Shown piece after piece: positions 6,820 through 16,218 of a stretch of DNA of 64,000 nucleotides. The notes under the pieces were generated by a model. That model was not told the origin of the DNA. It saw only the letters and a program-made list of their open reading frames with translations, and did no database searches. Source of the stretch: Planctomycetota bacterium (GTDB lineage: Bacteria; Planctomycetota; Phycisphaerae; UBA1845; UTPLA1); assembly GCA_015654675.1 (NCBI GenBank), contig JAATGM010000018.1, forward strand, positions 1-64,000. The letters run 5' to 3'. The position numbers and the translations under genes are program-made. The stretch's first letter is position 1; the number at the start of each line of letters is the position of its first letter.

Positions 6820-7029
6820 TCAAACCTTTGCAAACGGATACACGCGTTTAATGTGCGCGTTGAAATAGGTGCCGTGAGATGTCGCACCCATAATTCCGTC
6901 GTATTCTGACTGAGGCACGTTCGAATACTGGTATAGGGAACCGTCGTTGAACTCGATCTCCAATACGCTGGAATCGGAGTCGTAGCCGATCGACCGAATG
7001 TTTGATGACGAGACCGCTTTCCTTTCCAT
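6820..7029 (-). CDS. KTSC domain protein
   Basis: 69 residues made entirely of a KTSC domain: VSSSNIRSIGYDSDSSVLEI, then EFNDGSLYQYSNVP and GTYFNAHIKRVYPF at the C-terminus. KTSC domains are small beta-rich modules found alone or beside nucleic-acid enzymes and have no assigned reaction. The start is supported by GGAG 7 bases upstream on the minus strand. It begins 16 bases after the HerA stop, so it is probably the last gene of the DUF2130-SIR2-HerA operon. Like SIR2 and HerA it appears less GC-rich than neighbouring genes by eye. Confidence 0.88.
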   Translation of the reverse strand: MERKAVSSSNIRSIGYDSDSSVLEIEFNDGSLYQYSNVPQSEYDGIMGATSHGTYFNAHIKRVYPFAKV

Positions 7030-7045
7030 ACCTTTGCTCCAATGG

Positions 7046-8914
7046 TTAGACCGTTGGCTTTTGAGCTCGCCACGCTTTTACGAGCAATTTATAGTCCTCT
7101 GCGTAAAGCTGCTCCGTCCAGCCGATGCGAGGCCTCCGCTTGCCGTCCTTATCTCTTTGCGCAACAACTTTGGGGTCCTCGCTATCTGGGCGTCGGCCTT
7201 CTGGTGGCAAGTCAATCACCGCTCGCACTGGTAAATTGACCGCGTCGCCTACCACGAGGGCTTCACCTGTTCGCAGTATTGGAAGCATACTGAACAGCCC
7301 TTCAAGGCTATCAGACGAACATGATCGCACGTGTCCGCGATCGGCCTCATTGGTTAGTCGCATCGCTACCGTAGTGCCGCACTGCGAGAGAATTGTGCCG
7401 TCGATCTCGGACGGGCGCTGGCTGACAAGCATGAGTCCGACGCCGTACTTCCGACCTTCTTTCGCCACTTGTCGAGCCGCTATCGCAGCCCTGTTCTTGG
7501 CTTGGGTCCCGAGGTATGCGTGCGCCTCTTCAAGCACAATCAATAACGGACGATCGCGACCGCCTTCCGGCTTACATCTTCCCCAGTAAAGAGCATCATA
7601 GAGTATTCGCAGCATGGCCCCGACTAGTTCATCGAGAACCGCCTTGGGTATGCCCGAAAGATCGAACACACAAATGGGCGTTGTGGCCCCCAGCCACGAG
7701 GCTAGGAGTGAATCGAGATCTGCCGCGGTACTCCCATCTTTCCGGGCCGCCCATTGGCCTGGCTGAAATAGAAAGGCCAATCGCGGGTCGCGCAAGCGCA
7801 CCTCAAGAGTGTCGATATGTGTGCGCGCTTGCCCCGCGTATTGCCCCTTATAAACCTTCGGATTCGCAGTTTGGCTCTGATCAACAGCGAGGAATTTCGG
7901 GCGTGTTAACGTTGCGCTGTCACCAATCGAGTCAGCTGCTGGATCGCCTTCCTTTTCGTAGGCTCGCGTCGCTTCGCTTTGATTTTGGTTTTCGCTGACG
8001 GTGTGTGTAGCGCATTGGACAGAATAGAGATGTAGCCATAGTTCATGAACTGAAAATGGAAGCGGCGTGTCGATCGTTACATCTGCATCTCGGAGACCGT
8101 GGGGTCTACCACTTGGTCTTGATGCTCTCCGAGCTTTCAGCAACCACTCTTGCGCAATCGTGAGAGGTGTACCGGTGATGATTCCCATGGACACCGTCAT
8201 GAGTTCTTCCGCTGTAAGCGCCCAGAAAGGAATATTAAGCTCATTCTCCCCTTTGGATGTGTCCGCGCCTATTCGGAACACAGTCGCCCGATCTCCAAAT
8301 GCCCTAACATATTCCCCATGTAGATCGAGCAATACGACGCGAGCTGCCGGAAACTTGTTGTTGTCTGAGAGCGCGGCTAGGAGACTGGCTACGGTTGTTG
8401 ATTTTCCGGAGCCGGTGCTTCCCACCACTGCGCTGTGCCGACTGACGAGACGATTGAGGTCGATAAACGCACGGATTCCCTCGGCGCTGGCCACACGACC
8501 AATGGACACATGCGACTCTGCGTCCATTGGCGCGTACACTAGGCGAAGGTCTGTTTCGGTTACGACATGCACCGCGTCGCCGATCGATGGATACTGAGAT
8601 ACTCCGCGTTCGAACTTTCCTCCGCGTCGCCCTTCCCCTACTAGTTCGACCCGCAGCCACCTAGTACCCAATTGCGCCGCTAATTCCGGAGGGCCTGGCG
8701 CAGCGCCGGCGCCGACCTGAACGACAATGCCGAAAAGATCAACGTATCCTGCGGGAATCCGGACGAAGCTGCCGACTTGCCCTACGCGGTAACCCTCGCC
8801 GCGATAAAACAACAGCCCATGGGTAGTTGCCGCATCGAGCTTGACGCTTACGCGCGAGCCGGTGACATCCTCAACTGTGCCAAGTCTGGTCGGATCAATC
8901 GCGATTTGCGACAT
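7046..8914 (-). CDS. HerA-like hexameric ATPase/translocase (defence-type)
   Basis: 622 residues. An N-terminal HAS-barrel-like region (VDLFGIVVQVGAG near residue 60) precedes a HerA/FtsK-type ATPase: Walker A GSTGSGKST at residues 165-173, VVLLDLHGEY near 200, Walker B LLIVLEEAHAYLG near 470, then SQRPSEID and an Arg-rich sensor region. HerA proteins are DNA translocases. Fused or paired with SIR2 or DUF4297 they form the SIR2-HerA (Nezha) type antiphage systems. The ATG at 8914 is preceded by GAGGT and overlaps the SIR2 gene by 20 bases, showing translational coupling. No NurA-like nuclease gene is adjacent, arguing against the archaeal-type repair pairing. Confidence 0.88.
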   Translation of the reverse strand: MSQIAIDPTRLGTVEDVTGSRVSVKLDAATTHGLLFYRGEGYRVGQVGSFVRIPAGYVDLFGIVVQVGAGAAPGPPELAAQLGTRWLRVELVGEGRRGGKFERGVSQYPSIGDAVHVVTETDLRLVYAPMDAESHVSIGRVASAEGIRAFIDLNRLVSRHSAVVGSTGSGKSTTVASLLAALSDNNKFPAARVVLLDLHGEYVRAFGDRATVFRIGADTSKGENELNIPFWALTAEELMTVSMGIITGTPLTIAQEWLLKARRASRPSGRPHGLRDADVTIDTPLPFSVHELWLHLYSVQCATHTVSENQNQSEATRAYEKEGDPAADSIGDSATLTRPKFLAVDQSQTANPKVYKGQYAGQARTHIDTLEVRLRDPRLAFLFQPGQWAARKDGSTAADLDSLLASWLGATTPICVFDLSGIPKAVLDELVGAMLRILYDALYWGRCKPEGGRDRPLLIVLEEAHAYLGTQAKNRAAIAARQVAKEGRKYGVGLMLVSQRPSEIDGTILSQCGTTVAMRLTNEADRGHVRSCSSDSLEGLFSMLPILRTGEALVVGDAVNLPVRAVIDLPPEGRRPDSEDPKVVAQRDKDGKRRPRIGWTEQLYAEDYKLLVKAWRAQKPTV

Positions 8915-10223
8915 GATCTACCTCGGCTCTTCCTCCGTAGAGCTGCTCTAGGAAGAGAGAAAAATAGTGGAAGTCGCCCAAACGGCATTGGGCCGTCAAC
9001 GGAGCGGTTTTGTCAGCTCCGGCAGTCAGCTCATTGTAAATCCAAACATCCTCCGGGCGTGTCGCGGAATGCTGGATTATATAGGGGCCTTTGCGATTCC
9101 CAACGACGGCGCCGTCAGTGGCAAGCACAGTCATGTTGGGCTGACTACCAGCAAAATCGACTACATTCTTCGCTTTTCCAAGCGCCTGGTACTCGAGAAC
9201 GAAGCACTGCGCCGCTGGGTTTCCACGTAGGCCGTCCAGCAACACTTCATTGAGGTGATCGTCGGAAAACGAGTAGCCGCACACAACTAGGACAGGGGGG
9301 CCAAGACTCTGCACTTGCCCAATGGCGCGAAAAAAAGAGCGAAGTCGATCAATCATGGCGAGGTAAGGCAAGCGACGGCTTTGGTCGTACTTTAGGTGCG
9401 ACGGGTAGATTATCGCTTTGCCATGTGCAGCTCTCCCTTGTGCCCTGAATACTGTGCCATCATTGCGTCGTTCCCAATTTATTGATCCGTGGAGTTTCCA
9501 CAAGCGCGCCCAACGACGAGGGATGGCGTCCTGTTCAATCGAAGCGATGTCAAAGAATGGCTCTCGGGAGCCGACGAATCCGTCGAAATGTGGGATGCGC
9601 TGCCGCTCGAATGCTTCCTCGATGAGGAGATCGTAGTTAGGAGTGAATAGTTCCACCGGCGCGGCGCGCTGGAGACCTCCAATCCACGATGCGAGACGAT
9701 GGTATGAGCAGCGATGCGCGGGTAGTGATTTTCCTACGATTTCGACGATGAGGTCGCATATCGCTTCGTCGAGGCACTTTAACCTATCCTTTCCGATTCC
9801 ATCGAGAGGCTTTTGACCCTTGCGGCCAGTTAGTGCGCGTAGCTCGGTGAGGATGCTCTCAACGTTTGGTTCGGTGTCTCCTCCGTCCTTGCATGCTAGA
9901 GCCAACGAGTCCCAGCACGGAATATGGCGTTTGTCCCGCTCTAATTGTTCGTCAAGGGCCTTCAGTCGGACATAAAGTGTTTTGGTGAGCTGTGCTACAT
10001 CTGGAATCAACAGCAGGCTTCTCTCTCCCTTTTCATCATAAATACCTAGAGGACAACCGGCACCGAGGAATAGGCCGATGCGAACGCGGTCAGATTGGAG
10101 CGCGTCGCGGAGCAGATTGGACTGTCGAATTATGTCGTGGCTGTATTCGGGGTTTCCGGCGACGGGTGCAGCTGGTTGGGTAGCTGGAGATCCCGTAGCG
10201 GTAGTTTTTGTGATTGCGGTCAT
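8895..10223 (-). CDS. SIR2-family NADase-like defence protein
   Basis: 442 residues. SIR2-like signatures: GLFLGAGCPLG at 50-60 (NAD-binding GAG), TPNYD at 194-198, KLHGSINW at 243-250 with the likely catalytic His at 245, and CGYSFSDDHLNE near 316-327. The first 25 residues are a Thr/Ala/Pro-rich extension. In characterised SIR2-HerA systems the SIR2 subunit depletes NAD+ on phage infection while HerA forms the partner oligomer; that role is inferred here. The ATG overlaps the DUF2130 stop as ATGA (10220-10223) and the 3' end overlaps herA by 20 bases. Confidence 0.88.
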   Translation of the reverse strand: MTAITKTTATGSPATQPAAPVAGNPEYSHDIIRQSNLLRDALQSDRVRIGLFLGAGCPLGIYDEKGERSLLLIPDVAQLTKTLYVRLKALDEQLERDKRHIPCWDSLALACKDGGDTEPNVESILTELRALTGRKGQKPLDGIGKDRLKCLDEAICDLIVEIVGKSLPAHRCSYHRLASWIGGLQRAAPVELFTPNYDLLIEEAFERQRIPHFDGFVGSREPFFDIASIEQDAIPRRWARLWKLHGSINWERRNDGTVFRAQGRAAHGKAIIYPSHLKYDQSRRLPYLAMIDRLRSFFRAIGQVQSLGPPVLVVCGYSFSDDHLNEVLLDGLRGNPAAQCFVLEYQALGKAKNVVDFAGSQPNMTVLATDGAVVGNRKGPYIIQHSATRPEDVWIYNELTAGADKTAPLTAQCRLGDFHYFSLFLEQLYGGRAEVDHVANRD

Positions 10224-11500
10224 AGCATTTCCTTGCCGCTTGAGTCCGCTTCAAGCATTCTCACGCTCAGGCCCTCGATTTCTTGTAGCGTCTTTCCCGC
10301 AATGCCTTGAAGGTCGCCATACATGCCGGCGGTCGAATCGATCACGCCGCGAATCTGCTCTTCGCGCTTGGCCCACAGCCGAGTCATAGTCTTGCGTTCT
10401 TTGTCTAGGTCTTCCTGCATGTCGGTGAACTTTTCGACGATGGCCTGGACGCGGTGGCGGAAGCGGGGGCCGGTCAGGTAGTGGTAGACCATTTCCATTT
10501 TGGTCTGCTGGCCTTCGCCGGCGGCGCGGGCGGCGGCCAGCTCGGTCAGTGAGTGTCGCAACGCGATCGCCAGCGGGATGGCGCAGCGCGGGGCGGTGAC
10601 CCAGACGCCATCGAGCAGCGTGAATGTCTCCACGTCTTTGGGGAGGACCTGCGAGACGAGGATGGCCGCGTCGGCTTTGGCGGCGCGTTGGTCTTCGCGG
10701 AGCTTGGGGAGCCAGCCGTCGCTCCAGTTTCGGGTTCGCTTGGACTCCCAGAGGAGTGTTCCGCAGGGCTGGCCGAGCGGGCCGAGGATGCGGTGGAGGG
10801 CGTCGCCGCCGTGCTCGCCTTTGGGGACGGGCTCGATGGTGTCGCGCGGGAACGCTTCGCGGAGGAGGGCTTCGAGCTGGAGTTCCTGGACTTCGCCCTG
10901 TAGCTGCTGCGAGCCCTGCTCGGCTTTGCGCTTGAGCTCCTCGATCTGGCGCTGCATGCCGGCGATGGTCTGCTCTTTCTCCATGACTTTGAGCTTGAGT
11001 GACTCTTCGGCTTCCTTGCGGGCCTGATCGCGGGCGGTGGTGATGGTCTGCTGGACGCGTTTTTCGATGGTGAGTTCCATCTCGCGTTTGGCGTCGTCGA
11101 GTTCGCGTTGTTTGCGGATGAGGTCGGCCTGGGCTTTCTGGGCTTCGGCGAGTTTGACGTCGCGCTGCTTGAGGACGTCGTGGAGTTCGGCGAGTTCCTT
11201 TGATTTCTGGTCGAGGTCGTTGGAGAGGGCCAGCCGGGCTTTCCTGGCTTCGTCGGCGGCGATGGTGGTGCGTTCGAGTTTGAGTTTGGCGGCGACTTGT
11301 TCGTCGATGGATTCTCTTGCCTTGGCGAGGGCGGATTGCTCTTCGAGGATGGCGGCTTCGCGCTTGGCGATGTCGGCGTCTTTCTGTGCGAGTTGTTGCT
11401 GGAATTGGCGGCGGGTGGCGTCGATGAGCGGGGCGGCGAGTGACTCAGTGAGTTTGATATCGGTGTGGCAGTTTGGGCAGCGGATGATGGGTTCTGTCAT
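10220..11500 (-). CDS. DUF2130 coiled-coil protein with nuclease-like fold
   Basis: 426 residues. It begins with a CPNCH zinc-knuckle-like pair, then a charged coiled coil (about residues 25-210), then the DUF2130 core. The core has residues laid out like a PD-(D/E)xK nuclease: GGD at 231-233 and WESK at 251-254, followed by Gln/Lys-rich helices. DUF2130 proteins are widespread and uncharacterised, and are predicted to have a restriction-endonuclease-like fold. It is the first gene of the operon, with a four-base ATGA overlap to the SIR2 gene, so it is likely made in step with SIR2 and HerA. It looks more GC-rich than those genes, so it may be an older resident recruited to the operon. Confidence 0.8.
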   Translation of the reverse strand: MTEPIIRCPNCHTDIKLTESLAAPLIDATRRQFQQQLAQKDADIAKREAAILEEQSALAKARESIDEQVAAKLKLERTTIAADEARKARLALSNDLDQKSKELAELHDVLKQRDVKLAEAQKAQADLIRKQRELDDAKREMELTIEKRVQQTITTARDQARKEAEESLKLKVMEKEQTIAGMQRQIEELKRKAEQGSQQLQGEVQELQLEALLREAFPRDTIEPVPKGEHGGDALHRILGPLGQPCGTLLWESKRTRNWSDGWLPKLREDQRAAKADAAILVSQVLPKDVETFTLLDGVWVTAPRCAIPLAIALRHSLTELAAARAAGEGQQTKMEMVYHYLTGPRFRHRVQAIVEKFTDMQEDLDKERKTMTRLWAKREEQIRGVIDSTAGMYGDLQGIAGKTLQEIEGLSVRMLEADSSGKEML

Positions 11501-11711: not shown

Positions 11712-13253
11712 CTACGGGGGGCTAGCTGGCTGCGACGTTGCGGCGCGGTATTTGTCGGCCATTTGTTGGTAGCGGGATTGGGATTCGGGGGCGAGGGGGA
11801 GGGTCATGTGGTCTTTGTCGGGGACGATGATGACTTCGGCGTCGCTGCCTAGTTCCTTGAGGGTCTGGGCTAGCAGCACGACCGCACCGTCGAGGTAGAA
11901 GTTGTCTTTGTCGCCGACGATGATGTGGAGCTTGCCGGCGAGTTTGGGGGCGAGCTGTTTCCAGTTTTTGCGCAGACAGAGATTGATGTCGTAGGCCTGC
12001 CACGCCTTGGCGACTTCGGGGTTGATGACGCCGGTCTTGCGGTCGAAGAGTTCCTGCGGCTGGCCGTCGGGGCCGCGCGGGCTGAAGACGGCTTCGAAGG
12101 ATCCGAGTTGTCCGCCGGGGCCTTGGGCGGTCTCCATTTTGGCGAAGTCGCGGACGGTGAGGGTGGGGACATTGTTCATGCGGGCGATGGGGCGGGCTTT
12201 GTTTTCGCGGTCTTTGAAGGCGTTCTCGCCCGAGGCGTAGAGGTTGATGCCGGTGAAGTTGCGGAAGTCGACAGGGTCGGGGGCGGAGGACCAGACGCCG
12301 GCGAAGTAGTCGGGGTGGGTGATCATGAGCCACAAGCTGGACCAGCCGCCGGAGGAGTGGCCGGTGAGGAAGCGGGCGCGCGGCTCGGGGTCCAGGCGGA
12401 ATTCTTTTTCGAGGTAGGGGATGAGTTCTTCGACGAGGGCCTGCGACCAGGGGCCGTTGTTGGCGGAGTCGGCGAAGACGTGGTGGCCGAGCGGGCAGTT
12501 GGGGTCGGGGACGATGAAGACGAAGGGCTGGTCGGTCTTGGGGGGCATGCCGCGGTAGTAGAGGACCTGTCGCGGGCCGCCGCCGAATCCGGGGATGTCG
12601 TAGACGGCGGGGTAGCGGAGCGGGCCTTTGGGGTCGTAGCCGACGGGGAGGCAGAGGGCGGCGCGGATTTTGGTGGGCTTGTTGAAGAACCTGGTGAGGA
12701 GTTTGCTTTCGATTTCAACGGACTTGATGCGTTCGTCTTCGATGAGTTTGGCGGGCGGGGCGACGCGGCGGATGCGGAGGTCGATGGTGCCGGAGGTTTT
12801 GGGGTCGATGCGCTTGTTGACGACGGAGCTATAGGCGTTGCCGGGTGCGCCGGGGTGTCTGCGGCCGTCGCCGGCGAGGTCCATGACGGCCTGGATGCGG
12901 AAGCGCTTGGCGGGCCACTCGGAGATGGGGACGGGGAAGGCGACGGCGTTGTCGGCGATTTCGAGCGGGGTGTCGGGCTTCCAGTCTTTGACTTCGACAG
13001 AGGCGAAGGGTTCGGTGAAGAACCAGTCGGGGCCGAAGCGCGGGTCGCGACGCTGGATGGTGGAGGTCATGATCCAGACGCGGCCGGTGAAAGGGGATTT
13101 TTGGACGGTTGGGTCGAAAGAGACGAGGAACTTGAGGGGGCCGGCGGGTTGGGAGGACGTGGGTTGAGAAGCGGCGGGTTGGGTGGTTGGGGCGGCGAAG
13201 GAGGGGACGAAGCTGATCAGCCCGGCGGCGATGGTGATTGAGACTCGCTTCAC
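11712..13253 (-). CDS. Secreted esterase, alpha/beta hydrolase (esterase D/Fes-like)
   Basis: 513 residues from a GTG start at 13253. A signal peptide (MKRVSITIAAGLISFVPSFA) and a TTQPAASQP linker precede an N-terminal beta-rich domain and a hydrolase domain. The hydrolase has the nucleophile elbow GHSSGGW (Ser), a GDKDN acidic segment and KDHMTL for the His. The start is chosen over the longer frame from 13358 because GGAG lies 8 bases upstream and the signal peptide begins there; the longer start would overlap the divergent aminotransferase. It probably acts on esters or peptides outside the cytoplasm; the substrate is unknown. Confidence 0.8.
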   Translation of the reverse strand: MKRVSITIAAGLISFVPSFAAPTTQPAASQPTSSQPAGPLKFLVSFDPTVQKSPFTGRVWIMTSTIQRRDPRFGPDWFFTEPFASVEVKDWKPDTPLEIADNAVAFPVPISEWPAKRFRIQAVMDLAGDGRRHPGAPGNAYSSVVNKRIDPKTSGTIDLRIRRVAPPAKLIEDERIKSVEIESKLLTRFFNKPTKIRAALCLPVGYDPKGPLRYPAVYDIPGFGGGPRQVLYYRGMPPKTDQPFVFIVPDPNCPLGHHVFADSANNGPWSQALVEELIPYLEKEFRLDPEPRARFLTGHSSGGWSSLWLMITHPDYFAGVWSSAPDPVDFRNFTGINLYASGENAFKDRENKARPIARMNNVPTLTVRDFAKMETAQGPGGQLGSFEAVFSPRGPDGQPQELFDRKTGVINPEVAKAWQAYDINLCLRKNWKQLAPKLAGKLHIIVGDKDNFYLDGAVVLLAQTLKELGSDAEVIIVPDKDHMTLPLAPESQSRYQQMADKYRAATSQPASPP

Positions 13254-13356
13254 GGTGTTGACTCCAGAGAGCGGGACAGCGTGCGCAACTTGAGACGCGT
13301 CTGGTGCAGATTTATACTCGCTTTGCAACTTTGTCTCGAACGGCTGGAGGAATGTC

Positions 13357-14490
13357 ATGCCGAAGCTTCGCTTGTTTACGCCTGGTCCGACGATGGTTCC
13401 TGACGAGATTCTGCTGGAGATGGCGCGGCCGATCGAGCATCACCGGACGCAGACTTATCGCGACTGGCTGAAGGAGGCGACTGAGAACCTGCAATACCTG
13501 TTTCAGACGAAGGGGACGTGTCTGACGATTACGGGGAGCGGGACGGCGGCGGCGGAGGGGGCGATCGTGTCGATCGTTCCGCCGGGGAAGAAGGCACTGG
13601 TTTGTCATGGCGGGAAGTTTGCGGAGCGGTGGCGCGACGTCTGCAAGCGGTTCAAGATCGAGCACGTGGAATATGAGTATGAGTATGGGCGCGGGGCGGA
13701 CCCGGCGCGGGTGGCGGAGATCCTGAAGAAGGAGGCGAACATCGCGGCGGTGATCACGGTGCACTCGGAGACGAGCACGTGCGCGGTGTCGGACGTGGCG
13801 GCGATCGCGAAGCACACGCGGGCGCATGACTGCCTGCTGATGACGGACTGCATCACGTCGGTCGGGTGTCTGCCGTTCAAGATGGATGAGTGGGGGATTG
13901 ATATCGCGATCACGGGGTCGCAGAAGGCGCTGATGCTGCCGCCGGGGCTGGGGTTTGTGGCGGTGAATGATCGGGCGTGGAAGGTAATTGATTCGTTCGA
14001 TGCGCCGATTTTCTATAACAATCTGAAGGCGTTTCGGAAGTCTCTGGCGGACTGGGATGCGCCGTGGACGCCGGCGAACACGCTGGTGCGGGCGCTGCGG
14101 ATGGCGCTGAGCATGATCAAGAAGGAAGGGCTGGAGAATATCTGGGCGCGGACGGCGCGGCTGGCGAAGGCGACGCGGTCGGCGGCGCAGGCGATGGGGC
14201 TGACGGTGTTCGCGAAGGATCCGGCCGACAGCGTGACGGGGATCAACACGCCGGCGGGCGTGGACAATGACAAGTGGCGGAAGGAGATGAAGAGCAAGTT
14301 CGGCGTGCAACTGGCGGACGGGCAGGGGCAGCTGGCGGGGAAGATGGTGCGGATTTCGCACATGGGATGGGTGGATGATTTGGACACGCTCGGGGCGATC
14401 GGGGCGATGGAGATGACGCTGCGGTCGCAGGGGCACAAGTGCGAGGTTGGGGCGGGGACGACGGCGTTTTTGAAGGGGCTTGGGGGGTAA
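13357..14490 (+). CDS. Class V aminotransferase (alanine/serine-glyoxylate type)
   Basis: 377 residues. FTPGPTMVPDEILLEMARPI at the N-terminus, GSGTAAAEGAI near residue 60 (cofactor phosphate contacts), and GSQKALMLPPGL near residue 188 with the PLP-binding Lys place it with purine catabolism/alanine-glyoxylate/serine-glyoxylate aminotransferases. CTGGAGGAA immediately upstream provides a strong ribosome-binding site. It is divergent from the secreted esterase. The amino donor cannot be told from sequence alone. Confidence 0.88.
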   Translation: MPKLRLFTPGPTMVPDEILLEMARPIEHHRTQTYRDWLKEATENLQYLFQTKGTCLTITGSGTAAAEGAIVSIVPPGKKALVCHGGKFAERWRDVCKRFKIEHVEYEYEYGRGADPARVAEILKKEANIAAVITVHSETSTCAVSDVAAIAKHTRAHDCLLMTDCITSVGCLPFKMDEWGIDIAITGSQKALMLPPGLGFVAVNDRAWKVIDSFDAPIFYNNLKAFRKSLADWDAPWTPANTLVRALRMALSMIKKEGLENIWARTARLAKATRSAAQAMGLTVFAKDPADSVTGINTPAGVDNDKWRKEMKSKFGVQLADGQGQLAGKMVRISHMGWVDDLDTLGAIGAMEMTLRSQGHKCEVGAGTTAFLKGLGG

Positions 14491-14514
14491 GGGACGGACG
14501 CGCCGCCGCGCGGG

Positions 14515-16218
14515 TCAGGCGGGTTGGCTGGCCGGGGTGGTGAAGGCGCGGCGGATGTCGGCGATGAGCTGGTCTACTTTGAAGGGTTTGAAGAGGACGC
14601 CGGCGAGGCCTTCGCGGCGGGCGCGGACGACGGAGTGGTTGGGGTCGTAGCCGAAGCCGGTCATGAGGACCACGGGGATATTGGGGTTTCGCTCTTTGAC
14701 GGCGGCGAAGATTTCGTAGCCGTTTTTGTGTGGCATTTTGATATCGGCGAGGACGAGGTCGTGGGGCTGTCGCTCGAAGAGGGCGAGGGCGGCGGCGCCG
14801 TCGGGCGCGGTTTCAACTTCGGCGCCGCGTTTCGAGAGGACGCCGGCGATGGTTTCGCGAATGGTGTCTTCGTCATCTGCCACGAGGATGCGCTTACCGG
14901 CCAGAACTGGATCTGTCTGCGGTGATTCTTCGTCGCGGCCGAGGATGCCGCCCTTGGGAGCGGTGACTTCACGGATAGAGCGCTTGATAAGCGTGACGTT
15001 GTCGCAGATGAGGTCGAGCCGGCGGCGGAGTTCGTCGTTGCCGATGTATTCTTCTTTTATTGTTGCGGCTTCGGTGAGGATGTCGTTGAGGGGGCCGGCG
15101 ATTTCGCTGGAAACGTCATCGGCGAGCTGGCCAGTGGTCTGGAAGCGCTCGGTAACGAGGAGTTCGAGGGTGTGGAGCGCGATGGCGATGTAGCGGGCCA
15201 TGATCTCGGCGAACTGGCGGTCTTCGTCGTTGAAGGCGCCGAGGCGTTCGGACTCGATGTTGAAGACGCCGACGATTTTGTCCTGGAGTCGGAGGGGGAC
15301 CGTGAGGGAGGAGCGGGCTGATTCGAGGCCGGGGAGATAACGCGGGTCGTTCTGGATGTCGCCGCAGACGTAGGACTTGCCGGTTGCGGCGACGAAGCCG
15401 CTGATTCCGCTGCCCTCGGAGGCGACGTAGAGGTTGTAGGACTGGACGCGCTCGATCATGCCGTGCTGGAGGACGAATTCGAGCTTGTTCGTTTTCTTAT
15501 CGATGAGGAGGACGGCGAAGTTGTCGAAGTGCAGCAGGTTGTGGAGGTGTTCGTAGACGGTCTGTTCGAGGAGGCGGATGCGATCGTTGATGCGGAGCTG
15601 GGCGTTGGCCTCGGTTCCGAGGGCGACGAGTTCGCGGCCAGCGAGGTCGATGGCGTCGAGTTTTTTCTGGAGGCGGCGGGCGCGGGTGACGTCCCAGATG
15701 ACGGCGATGACCTGCGACTGATGCGATTCGGATTCGGAGGCGAGGATGGGTGTGGCGGTGATTTCGAAGTATTGATCGTTGCCGGCTGTCAGTGGGAAGC
15801 GGTGAGCACGCTGGTGAGGGCTACGCTGGTCTTCGTTGCCGCCGGTGCGGGAGCCGAGCAGGACGCGCTGACAACTTTGGCAGACCTGCTGCATGAGGTC
15901 GGGCGGATAGTCGCGCATGATGGCGTTGGCGTAAACGAGGCGGCCTGACTCGTCGATGATGCAGACGCCCTGACCGAGTGATTCAAGCGCGGCGGAGGCC
16001 TGTTGAGTGACGGCGGCGCGTTCGATGGCGAGGACGTCGCCTTGCTCGCTGATGACGAGATCGAAGCGATCGTTTTTGATTGCGTTGAGGACTTCCTGGA
16101 AGGAATGTTTGATGGTCACGTCGGCCGAGGCGAGCATGGACGTGACCCAATCATTGGGGGCGTTCCGCGCTCCGCGGAACAGGAGAATCTTTTTGCCTCG
16201 CCAAGGGGTGTCCGTCAT
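14515..16218 (-). CDS. PAS-GAF-response receiver signalling protein without kinase domain
   Basis: 567 residues. The order is: an N-terminal degenerate receiver-like segment (about 1-65), a PAS domain (QGVCIIDESGRLVYANAI near 85), a GAF domain (about 195-350; SGISGFVAATGKSYVCGDIQ), a helical dimerisation-like segment lacking the phospho-accepting His and any HATPase motif, and a C-terminal receiver. The receiver has the acidic DDED pair, the phospho-acceptor Asp in LVLADIKMPHKNGYE, LMTGF and the Lys in LFKPF. It therefore receives phosphate from another kinase rather than making it. The C-terminus ends TTPASQPA. Confidence 0.82.
   Translation of the reverse strand: MTDTPWRGKKILLFRGARNAPNDWVTSMLASADVTIKHSFQEVLNAIKNDRFDLVISEQGDVLAIERAAVTQQASAALESLGQGVCIIDESGRLVYANAIMRDYPPDLMQQVCQSCQRVLLGSRTGGNEDQRSPHQRAHRFPLTAGNDQYFEITATPILASESESHQSQVIAVIWDVTRARRLQKKLDAIDLAGRELVALGTEANAQLRINDRIRLLEQTVYEHLHNLLHFDNFAVLLIDKKTNKLEFVLQHGMIERVQSYNLYVASEGSGISGFVAATGKSYVCGDIQNDPRYLPGLESARSSLTVPLRLQDKIVGVFNIESERLGAFNDEDRQFAEIMARYIAIALHTLELLVTERFQTTGQLADDVSSEIAGPLNDILTEAATIKEEYIGNDELRRRLDLICDNVTLIKRSIREVTAPKGGILGRDEESPQTDPVLAGKRILVADDEDTIRETIAGVLSKRGAEVETAPDGAAALALFERQPHDLVLADIKMPHKNGYEIFAAVKERNPNIPVVLMTGFGYDPNHSVVRARREGLAGVLFKPFKVDQLIADIRRAFTTPASQPA

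What the first reader, a model, noticed from the sequence alone, without database searches (positions are those of the whole stretch)
6820..11500. DUF2130-SIR2-HerA-KTSC operon: an extended SIR2-HerA defence system
Genes are joined by an ATGA overlap (DUF2130/SIR2), a 20-base overlap (SIR2/HerA) and a 16-base gap (HerA/KTSC). SIR2-HerA is an established antiphage pair, but a translationally coupled DUF2130 with nuclease-like residues (GGD...ESK) upstream and a KTSC protein downstream is not part of the usual description. DUF2130 might be a nuclease or a trigger module.
Basis: partly seen in the sequence, partly recalled or inferred. Interest (0 to 1): 0.78.

Follow-up and report, generated by a model that had tools for sequence, protein, structure and literature searches.

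The report
Swappable defence cassettes behind DUF2130 gene
A resident bacterial gene with a nuclease-like fold heads an operon in which foreign anti-phage defence cassettes appear to be exchanged; here the cassette is a three-gene SIR2-HerA-KTSC system, so the locus looks more like a socket for bacterial immunity than like one longer SIR2-HerA system.

Summary
SIR2-HerA-KTSC is a unit of the known SIR2-HerA (Nezha) kind: KTSC directly follows HerA in 9 of 9 plasmid records opened through SIR2 hits, and it is the fused C-terminus of a solved HerA, 8wiv. DUF2130 is not specific to SIR2-HerA. It has a CxxC, a long coiled coil and a PD-(D/E)XK fold with D233, E252 and K254 invariant in 53 of 53 sequences. 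In relatives it precedes OLD/Gabija-like, RloC/PrrC-like, SMC-type or SIR2-HerA genes. Without the 17 loci that supplied query proteins, 24 of 87 loci carry such a gene within 2.5 kb downstream on the same strand, 0 on the opposite strand. SIR2-HerA pairs with DUF2130 cluster on their own tree, while their DUF2130s are scattered among DUF2130s with other cassettes (8 changes for 9 rows). In 24 of 28 pairs compared, homology stops at the DUF2130 3' end. DUF2130 GC3 is host-like, cassette GC3 lower (37 of 38). Reading: resident first gene plus exchangeable effector slot. What the DUF2130 protein does is inferred.

The parts
10220..11500 (-). DUF2130 protein, 426 aa: N-terminal CxxC (C8, C11), coiled coil about residues 23-216, PD-(D/E)XK-type domain (D233, E252, K254), C-terminal helix and variable tail; first gene of the operon, host-like GC3
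   Evidence: Pfam E 1.8e-80; models, VIA-align to nucleases; conservation; GC3 0.785
8895..10223 (-). SIR2 effector, 442 aa, sirtuin motifs present (GAGCP at 54, N196 in TPNYD, H245 in KLHGS)
   Evidence: Pfam SIR2_2; PADLOC SIR2 E 1.2e-114; solved relative 8w9l E 1.4e-74; motif positions
7046..8914 (-). HerA/FtsK-type ATPase, 622 aa, Walker A GSTGSGKST (165-173, K171), Walker B VLEEAH (460-465)
   Evidence: Pfam DUF87; PADLOC HerA E 1.4e-150; solved relative 8wiv E 1.9e-182; motif positions
6820..7029 (-). KTSC protein, 69 aa; counterpart of the C-terminal KTSC region of HerA 8wiv (chain residues 628-696)
   Evidence: Pfam E 6.3e-26; match to 8wiv_A 628-696 E 4.7e-17 and to 7x8c E 1.6e-19
10220..10223 (-). 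ATGA junction between DUF2130 and the SIR2-HerA-KTSC cassette; composition changes here
   Evidence: sequence; GC3; junctions of relatives

Best explanation
The locus is a two-part defence operon. Part 1 is a resident DUF2130 gene; part 2 is an exchangeable cassette, here SIR2-HerA-KTSC. Shown by comparison: the cassette is a unit by itself, other defence cassettes stand in the same place behind related DUF2130 genes and on the same strand, the junction lies at the DUF2130 3' end, and the cassette looks compositionally foreign while DUF2130 does not. Inferred: SIR2 and HerA assemble as in the solved SIR2-HerA complexes, an invading-DNA signal turns on NAD+ destruction, and KTSC is the detached C-terminal domain of HerA. 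Inferred and less sure: DUF2130 is a DNA-processing or DNA-end-recognising nuclease that works in front of whichever cassette is present. Because most recurrent partners are DNA-handling ATPases (HerA, OLD/Gabija, RloC/PrrC-type, SMC-type), a shared DNA signal would explain why one front gene suits many effectors. Its promoter and translational coupling also give an incoming cassette expression at once. New cassettes probably arrive by recombination that uses the conserved DUF2130 side as one arm.
For: Directionality: with 20 query proteins, 41 of 104 loci have a related gene within 2.5 kb downstream on the same strand, 0 on the opposite strand; upstream 3 of 110 same strand, 0 opposite; without the 17 query-source loci, 24 of 87 versus 0. 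Content: of 77 non-redundant named-genome loci, 33 have an ORF of at least 200 aa starting within 120 nt; Pfam counts among the 33 are SIR2_2 8, AAA_15 9, AAA_13 5, SMC_N 12, OLD-TOPRIM 5, overlapping. Control: 52 genes more than 5 kb away, none of these families in more than one member. Trees: SIR2+HerA pairs with DUF2130 need 2 label changes (shuffled mean 9.0), whereas on the DUF2130 tree the same cassette needs 8 changes for 9 rows (shuffled mean 8.8). Junction: 24 of 28 chosen pairs lose homology in the last stretch of DUF2130. Composition: DUF2130 GC3 above the first cassette gene in 37 of 38 loci, means 0.669, 0.553, background 0.675. Fold and motif. KTSC.
Against: 43 of 77 loci have no such tight gene and 1 was too short. 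Of 8 plasmid loci opened through DUF2130 (of 46 matching records) only B. guangzhouense has a recognisable cassette downstream on the same strand, 607 nt away. 0 of 14 viral loci match the cassette queries. Most SIR2-HerA-KTSC loci lack DUF2130. Cassette types are not wholly random on the DUF2130 tree: 36 changes in all versus 44.4 in shuffles, as low in 0 of 200. Lack of co-evolution argues against a specific protein contact between DUF2130 and SIR2-HerA. No activity was measured. The sample of DUF2130+ SIR2-HerA loci is biased, as most were found through DUF2130.
Confidence: 0.6

Rival explanations
1. Expression platform only: DUF2130 has its own unrelated housekeeping or repair job; cassettes settle behind it because its promoter and translational coupling express them and its conserved sequence offers homology for recombination. 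No functional link between the proteins.
For: No co-evolution of DUF2130 with SIR2-HerA; many DUF2130 genes without a tight downstream gene; viral DUF2130 loci without these cassettes; host-like composition; junction at the 3' end.
Against: The downstream genes are concentrated in defence families; an expression platform alone would accept any cargo. DUF2130 itself lies near restriction-type helicases upstream in part of the loci (ResIII in 6 of 28).
Confidence: 0.3
2. A dedicated four-gene SIR2-HerA variant: DUF2130 is a specific subunit or trigger of this SIR2-HerA clade.
For: Same gene order in 7 distinct loci (window, L054, L058, L083, L159, L170, L227); 7 DUF2130+ pairs fall into one 12-row clade (100/100) of the SIR2+HerA tree, six of them in a 95/97 subclade.
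Against: The matching DUF2130s do not cluster (8 changes for 9 rows); the window's nearest DUF2130 relatives precede SMC, OLD or AAA_13 genes; the same SIR2-HerA clade has members without DUF2130 (L183, L184, L219, L220).
Confidence: 0.1
3. DUF2130 is the agent of exchange: its nuclease cuts DNA and promotes capture of cassettes at its own 3' end, like a homing-type mobility gene.
For: Junctions at the DUF2130 3' end; partial second copies of its 3' part downstream in L140 (244 nt, 81%) and L162 (139 nt, 95%), two of 133 sequences examined.
Against: No repeat marking a regular insertion site was found in the other loci; DUF2130 has host-like GC3; strict co-orientation is explained as well by operon coupling.
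Confidence: 0.08

Closest known systems
SIR2-HerA (Nezha) anti-phage system
   Same: SIR2 with sirtuin motifs next to a HerA ATPase; closest solved relatives are SIR2 8w9l (E 1.4e-74) and HerA 8wiv (E 1.9e-182); KTSC is fused to HerA in 8wiv
   Different: KTSC is a separate third gene here; an additional DUF2130 gene leads the operon; NCBIfam's curated cut-offs for the antiphage SIR2 and HerA equivalogs are not reached
HerA-KTSC-endoDNase variants mentioned by the authors of PMC9503650 (passages read)
   Same: HerA coupled to a KTSC gene, in prokaryotic genomes
   Different: [quoted passage not shown] here sirtuin and KTSC occur together; DUF2130 is not mentioned in the passages seen
PD-(D/E)XK nucleases (McrC, Hjc, FokI, SPARDA effector, DdmD)
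   Same: Order of strands and helices, D...ExK motif, VIA-align Z 10.2 to McrBC 6hz4_M and 8.6 to Hjc; Foldseek best 9qcc E 2.9e-3
   Different: No Foldseek hit at E <= 0.001; sequence identity 10-23%; no solved relative of the whole protein by profile; activity unknown
Accessory genes inside restriction-modification operons, such as PrrC/RloC-type genes (recalled)
   Same: Some DUF2130 units lie beside type III-like Res or N6_N4_Mtase genes, and AAA_13 genes are among the cassettes
   Different: The window has no such genes beside the operon among the ORFs read; cassettes also include SIR2-HerA and OLD-like systems

Membership tests
SIR2-HerA (Nezha) | adjacent SIR2 and HerA genes matching defence models | tested here: met
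   PADLOC SIR2 E 1.2e-114 and HerA E 1.4e-150; 20-nt overlap
SIR2-HerA (Nezha) | sirtuin NADase motif residues and HerA Walker motifs | tested here: met
   N196, H245, GAGCP54; Walker A 165, VLEEAH 460; motif meaning recalled; residues align with 8w9l
SIR2-HerA (Nezha) | NCBIfam equivalog cut-offs for SIR2_antiphage and HerA_antiphage | tested here: not met
   49 bits against cut-off 500; 247 and 169 bits against 850 and 800. So it is a divergent relative, not those equivalogs
SIR2-HerA (Nezha) | NAD+ depletion and phage protection | not testable with these tools
   needs experiment
SIR2-HerA (Nezha) | KTSC as part of the system | tested here: met
   9 of 9 plasmid records opened of 48 matching; 10 of 11 genome loci L218-L228; fused in 8wiv. 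Not seen in L226 nor in the divergent L069-type loci
PD-(D/E)XK nuclease fold (DUF2130) | alpha-beta-beta-beta-alpha-beta core with D and ExK in the usual strands | tested here: met
   model pLDDT 89.2: H2-32 E37-40 E50-55 E61-70 H79-89 E94-99; D233, E252, K254 are model residues 49, 68, 70; VIA-align Z up to 10.2
PD-(D/E)XK nuclease fold (DUF2130) | DNA cleavage | not testable with these tools
   needs experiment
Gabija | OLD-like ATPase-TOPRIM followed by UvrD-type helicase in the window | tested here: not met
   the window has SIR2-HerA instead; Gabija-like pairs occur behind DUF2130 in L046, L049, L055
RmuC-like proteins | homology of DUF2130 to RmuC | not tested
   considered from memory only; Pfam gave no RmuC hit for DUF2130 at E <= 1

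The most novel reading that the evidence does not exclude
DUF2130 is a general front-end of bacterial immunity: a resident nuclease-fold protein that turns phage attack into a common DNA signal, behind which interchangeable ATPase-effector cassettes (SIR2-HerA-KTSC, Gabija/OLD-like, RloC/PrrC-like, SMC-type) are plugged in and replaced, so that the detector stays while the killer changes.
Probability: 0.3. Interest if true: 0.88.

Novelty: new variant of a known kind. Interest (0 to 1): 0.72.

Why it matters
If right, part of the diversity of two- and three-gene defence systems is a turnover of effectors behind one fixed gene, and those systems may have been tested without their natural upstream partner. 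DUF2130 is a family of unknown function; the text searches found no paper that ties it to defence (open-licence PMC papers only). The slot also gives a way to find further defence genes: read what stands directly behind DUF2130. For SIR2-HerA itself, KTSC should be included in experiments, since it recurs as a third gene or as a fused HerA domain.

Tried and rejected
Full-length DUF2130 model: pTM 0.25, weak Foldseek matches; the domain alone gave a usable model. Regular insertion-site repeats at the DUF2130 3' end: only two partial copies found. C-terminal tails do not sort visibly by cassette (by eye). Empty site: flanking esterase and amidohydrolase were sought in 21 relatives; both occur in some but not side by side on the evidence of their places, so no empty site was obtained. 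Promoters and terminators: not above shuffles. Full texts of three SIR2-HerA structure papers were not held. A first version of my own gene caller missed SIR2 genes and a second trimmed starts badly; later counts use tblastn and a chain of downstream ORFs.

Rows dropped or mended: L095, L096, L156 (same places as L047, L050, L056) and near copies L048, L057, L059, L060 were left out of the DUF2130 tree, as were sequences under 300 aa; one search also left out L128, L148, L149. In one search L155 was labelled AAA_13 without a hit and L098 and L118 were labelled 'other'; one search repeats the count with mended labels, and those numbers are used. L155 is in the 38 loci; without it the counts are 36 of 37 and 29 of 37. 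L097 (no HerA on its contig), L100 and L153 (no match to the window SIR2) and L218 (same as L170) are not in the SIR2+HerA tree. G709 (contig end) was not opened.
Full report
Observation. The four genes are real and lie on the minus strand: DUF2130 11500-10220, SIR2 10223-8895, HerA 8914-7046, KTSC 7029-6820. PADLOC models recognise SIR2 (E 1.2e-114) and HerA (E 1.4e-150); DUF2130 has only a weak match to ZorA (E 1.7e-4), which I take to be its coiled coil, and KTSC none. NCBIfam's equivalog cut-offs are not reached by SIR2 (49 bits against 500) or HerA (247 against 850), so this is a divergent member of the SIR2-HerA kind. The genome is probably a planctomycete: two DUF2130 loci of G402, a genome of the same family, match in contig length and position those of a record titled uncultured planctomycete.

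The cassette. SIR2-HerA-KTSC is a unit of its own. I opened 9 of 48 plasmid records that match the SIR2: all 9 carry a KTSC gene directly after HerA and none has DUF2130 directly upstream; one, Bradyrhizobium sp. 41S5, has a DUF2130 gene further downstream. In genomes, SIR2 relatives were found in 10 of 398 and 2 of 198 genomes of two other phyla. Of 11 loci opened (L218-L228), 10 have KTSC after HerA and 2 have DUF2130 directly upstream (L218, L227); L218 comes from a genome chosen through DUF2130. In the window's own phylum 12 of 294 genomes matched; L083 has all four genes, L094 has KTSC but too little upstream sequence, and the nine more distant loci L005-L013 showed no DUF2130 in their 1.5-kb flanks. 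The best solved relative of HerA, 8wiv, matches the window's HerA over chain residues 11-584 and the window's KTSC over residues 628-696. KTSC is therefore the detached C-terminal part of that HerA. A link of HerA with KTSC is in print as an aside, with an endoDNase in place of the sirtuin (PMC9503650, passages).

DUF2130. The protein has a CxxC near its start, a helix predicted from residue 23 to 216 and a C-terminal domain. The domain alone (residues 185-348, 53 sequences) gives a confident model, pLDDT 89.2, with the helix-three strands-helix-strand order of PD-(D/E)XK nucleases; D233 opens the second strand and E252 and K254 close the third. VIA-align's best match is McrBC 6hz4_M (Z 10.2, 114 residues, 3.5 A); Hjc resolvases follow at Z 8.0-8.6 and FokI at 7.7; other rows at Z near 10 include a TBP-interacting protein and VC1899. 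Foldseek's best is the SPARDA filament 9qcc (E 2.9e-3), with no hit at E <= 0.001. D220, D233, E252, K254, K266 and D270 are invariant in 53 of 53 sequences and D233, E252 and K254 in 51 of 51 of another set; C8 and C11 are present in 53 of 53 and in 46 of 51. The profile finds no solved relative of the whole protein.

What stands behind DUF2130. It occurs in 51 of 298 genomes of the window's class. Relatives 77-79% identical to the window's protein precede OLD-TOPRIM plus UvrD pairs (L046, L049), OLD-like genes (L050), AAA_13 genes (L051), a PHP-SMC gene (L047) or SMC-type genes (L044 second gene, L045); L055 (68%) has an OLD-UvrD pair and L073 (50%) an OLD-like gene; a minority have unrelated genes such as adenine deaminase (L065) or a transporter (L070). 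A second set, the 80 best loci of 528 candidates from named genomes, gives 77 non-redundant loci: 33 have an ORF of at least 200 aa on the same strand within 120 nt, 43 do not, 1 is too short. Pfam finds among the 33: SMC_N 12, AAA_21 11, AAA_15 9, SIR2_2 8, AAA_13 5, OLD-like TOPRIM 5, with overlaps. In 52 genes more than 5 kb away none of these families has more than one member (25 of 109 families were printed, all with two or more among them). In 28 tight upstream genes ResIII is found in 6, SNF2 in 4, RE_endonuc in 2 and AAA_13 in 1. The orientation test is the clearest: with 20 query proteins, 41 of 104 loci have a related gene within 2.5 kb downstream on the same strand and 0 on the opposite strand; upstream 3 of 110 and 0. 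Seventeen of the 41 supplied queries and were chosen as downstream genes; without them it is 24 of 87 and 0.

Exchange. On a tree of SIR2+HerA (31 rows), pairs with DUF2130 need 2 label changes (shuffled mean 9.0, 0 of 500 as low): seven, the window among them, in a 12-row clade (100/100) that also holds four without DUF2130 and one with DUF2130 nearby, and four in a second, distant lineage without KTSC. Most of these were found through DUF2130, which favours clustering; L083 and L227 were found through SIR2. On the DUF2130 tree (125 rows) the same SIR2-HerA type needs 8 changes for 9 rows (shuffled mean 8.8) and the second type 4 for 4. OLD needs 12 for 14, SMC 8 for 10, AAA_13 6 for 7; all labels together 36 against 44.4 in shuffles (0 of 200 as low), so cassette types are somewhat clustered, but far from one origin each. 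In Candidatus Nitrotoga, four DUF2130 genes 90-91% identical in DNA (L162, L168, L169, L170) have four different downstream regions, two of them different SIR2-HerA types.

Junctions. In 24 of 28 DUF2130 pairs that I chose, DNA homology covers the gene up to its last stretch (nt 1223-1295 of about 1260-1302) and stops. In the four others it runs on; three of these share a cassette type (L111/L104, L108/L107, L097/L098). In L045/L046 4.7 kb upstream plus DUF2130 are 91% identical, then the cassettes differ, then homology resumes at 93%, 4.0 and 5.5 kb from the DUF2130 start. The gene beyond the cassette is ArdC-like in L049 and L050; N6_N4 methylases follow the cassette in L101, L107, L143 and L144 and follow DUF2130 in L105. 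Two loci, L140 and L162, carry a partial second copy of the DUF2130 3' part downstream.

Composition. In the window GC3 is 0.785 for DUF2130 against 0.553 and 0.552 for SIR2 and HerA, while neighbouring genes from 11712 to 16218 have 0.80-0.85. Across 38 loci DUF2130 exceeds the first cassette gene in 37 (means 0.669 and 0.553; background 0.675) and is nearer the background in 30 (one of the 38, L155, has no recognised cassette). DUF2130 looks native and the cassette acquired.

Mechanism. Shown by comparison: a fixed first gene, an exchangeable defence cassette on the same strand, a junction at the DUF2130 3' end. Inferred from SIR2-HerA work known to me through PMC11559045 and PMC12198126 (passages): assembly of SIR2 and HerA and NAD+ loss on infection. 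Inferred with less support: DUF2130 as a DNA-acting nuclease that provides a common signal for different DNA-handling ATPases. The plainer rival, that DUF2130 only offers a promoter and homology, is not excluded; the absence of co-evolution fits it well. Results against a universal rule: 43 of 77 loci without a tight gene; only 1 of 8 plasmid loci opened through DUF2130 (of 46 records) with a cassette downstream; 0 of 14 viral loci.

Literature. DUF2130 with HerA: 0 papers. DUF2130 alone: 3 papers; one passage was read, a correlation table; the other two were seen as listings only. COG4487: 1; PF09903: 1, both listings. SIR2 with HerA and KTSC: 2 papers, passages read. The library holds open-licence papers only, so this does not show that nobody has described it.

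Verdict. SIR2-HerA-KTSC is a new member of a known kind. The DUF2130 slot is the interesting part: a new variant of modular defence organisation, with the function of the front gene open.

Noticed in passing
L144, L159, L117 and L083 (upstream of DUF2130): Genes of about 950-1000 aa end 4 nt inside or just before DUF2130; Pfam finds ResIII and RE_endonuc (type III Res-like) in the L083 one and in part of the upstream set, so some DUF2130-cassette units are nested in restriction operons.
   Followed up: partly
L044 6369-8108 and L102 9272-11044: A 579-590 aa protein directly behind DUF2130 and before an SMC-type ATPase; the L044 protein has no Pfam match at E 1e-3 and the L102 one is 51% identical to it: a candidate unknown effector.
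   Followed up: no
L076 6148-6381: A KTSC gene directly behind DUF2130 without SIR2.
   Followed up: no
L192-L205: Fourteen viral-collection contigs encode DUF2130 of 37-60% identity without the cassette queries nearby; several Helicobacter phage records carry the C-terminal half.
   Followed up: partly
L172 9269-11617: A MutS-domain plus Smr protein overlaps DUF2130 by 4 nt, another DNA-handling ATPase in the same slot.
   Followed up: no
L100 and L153: SIR2-domain genes of 602 and 543 aa directly behind DUF2130 that do not match the window SIR2 by tblastn: possibly further SIR2 systems.
   Followed up: no
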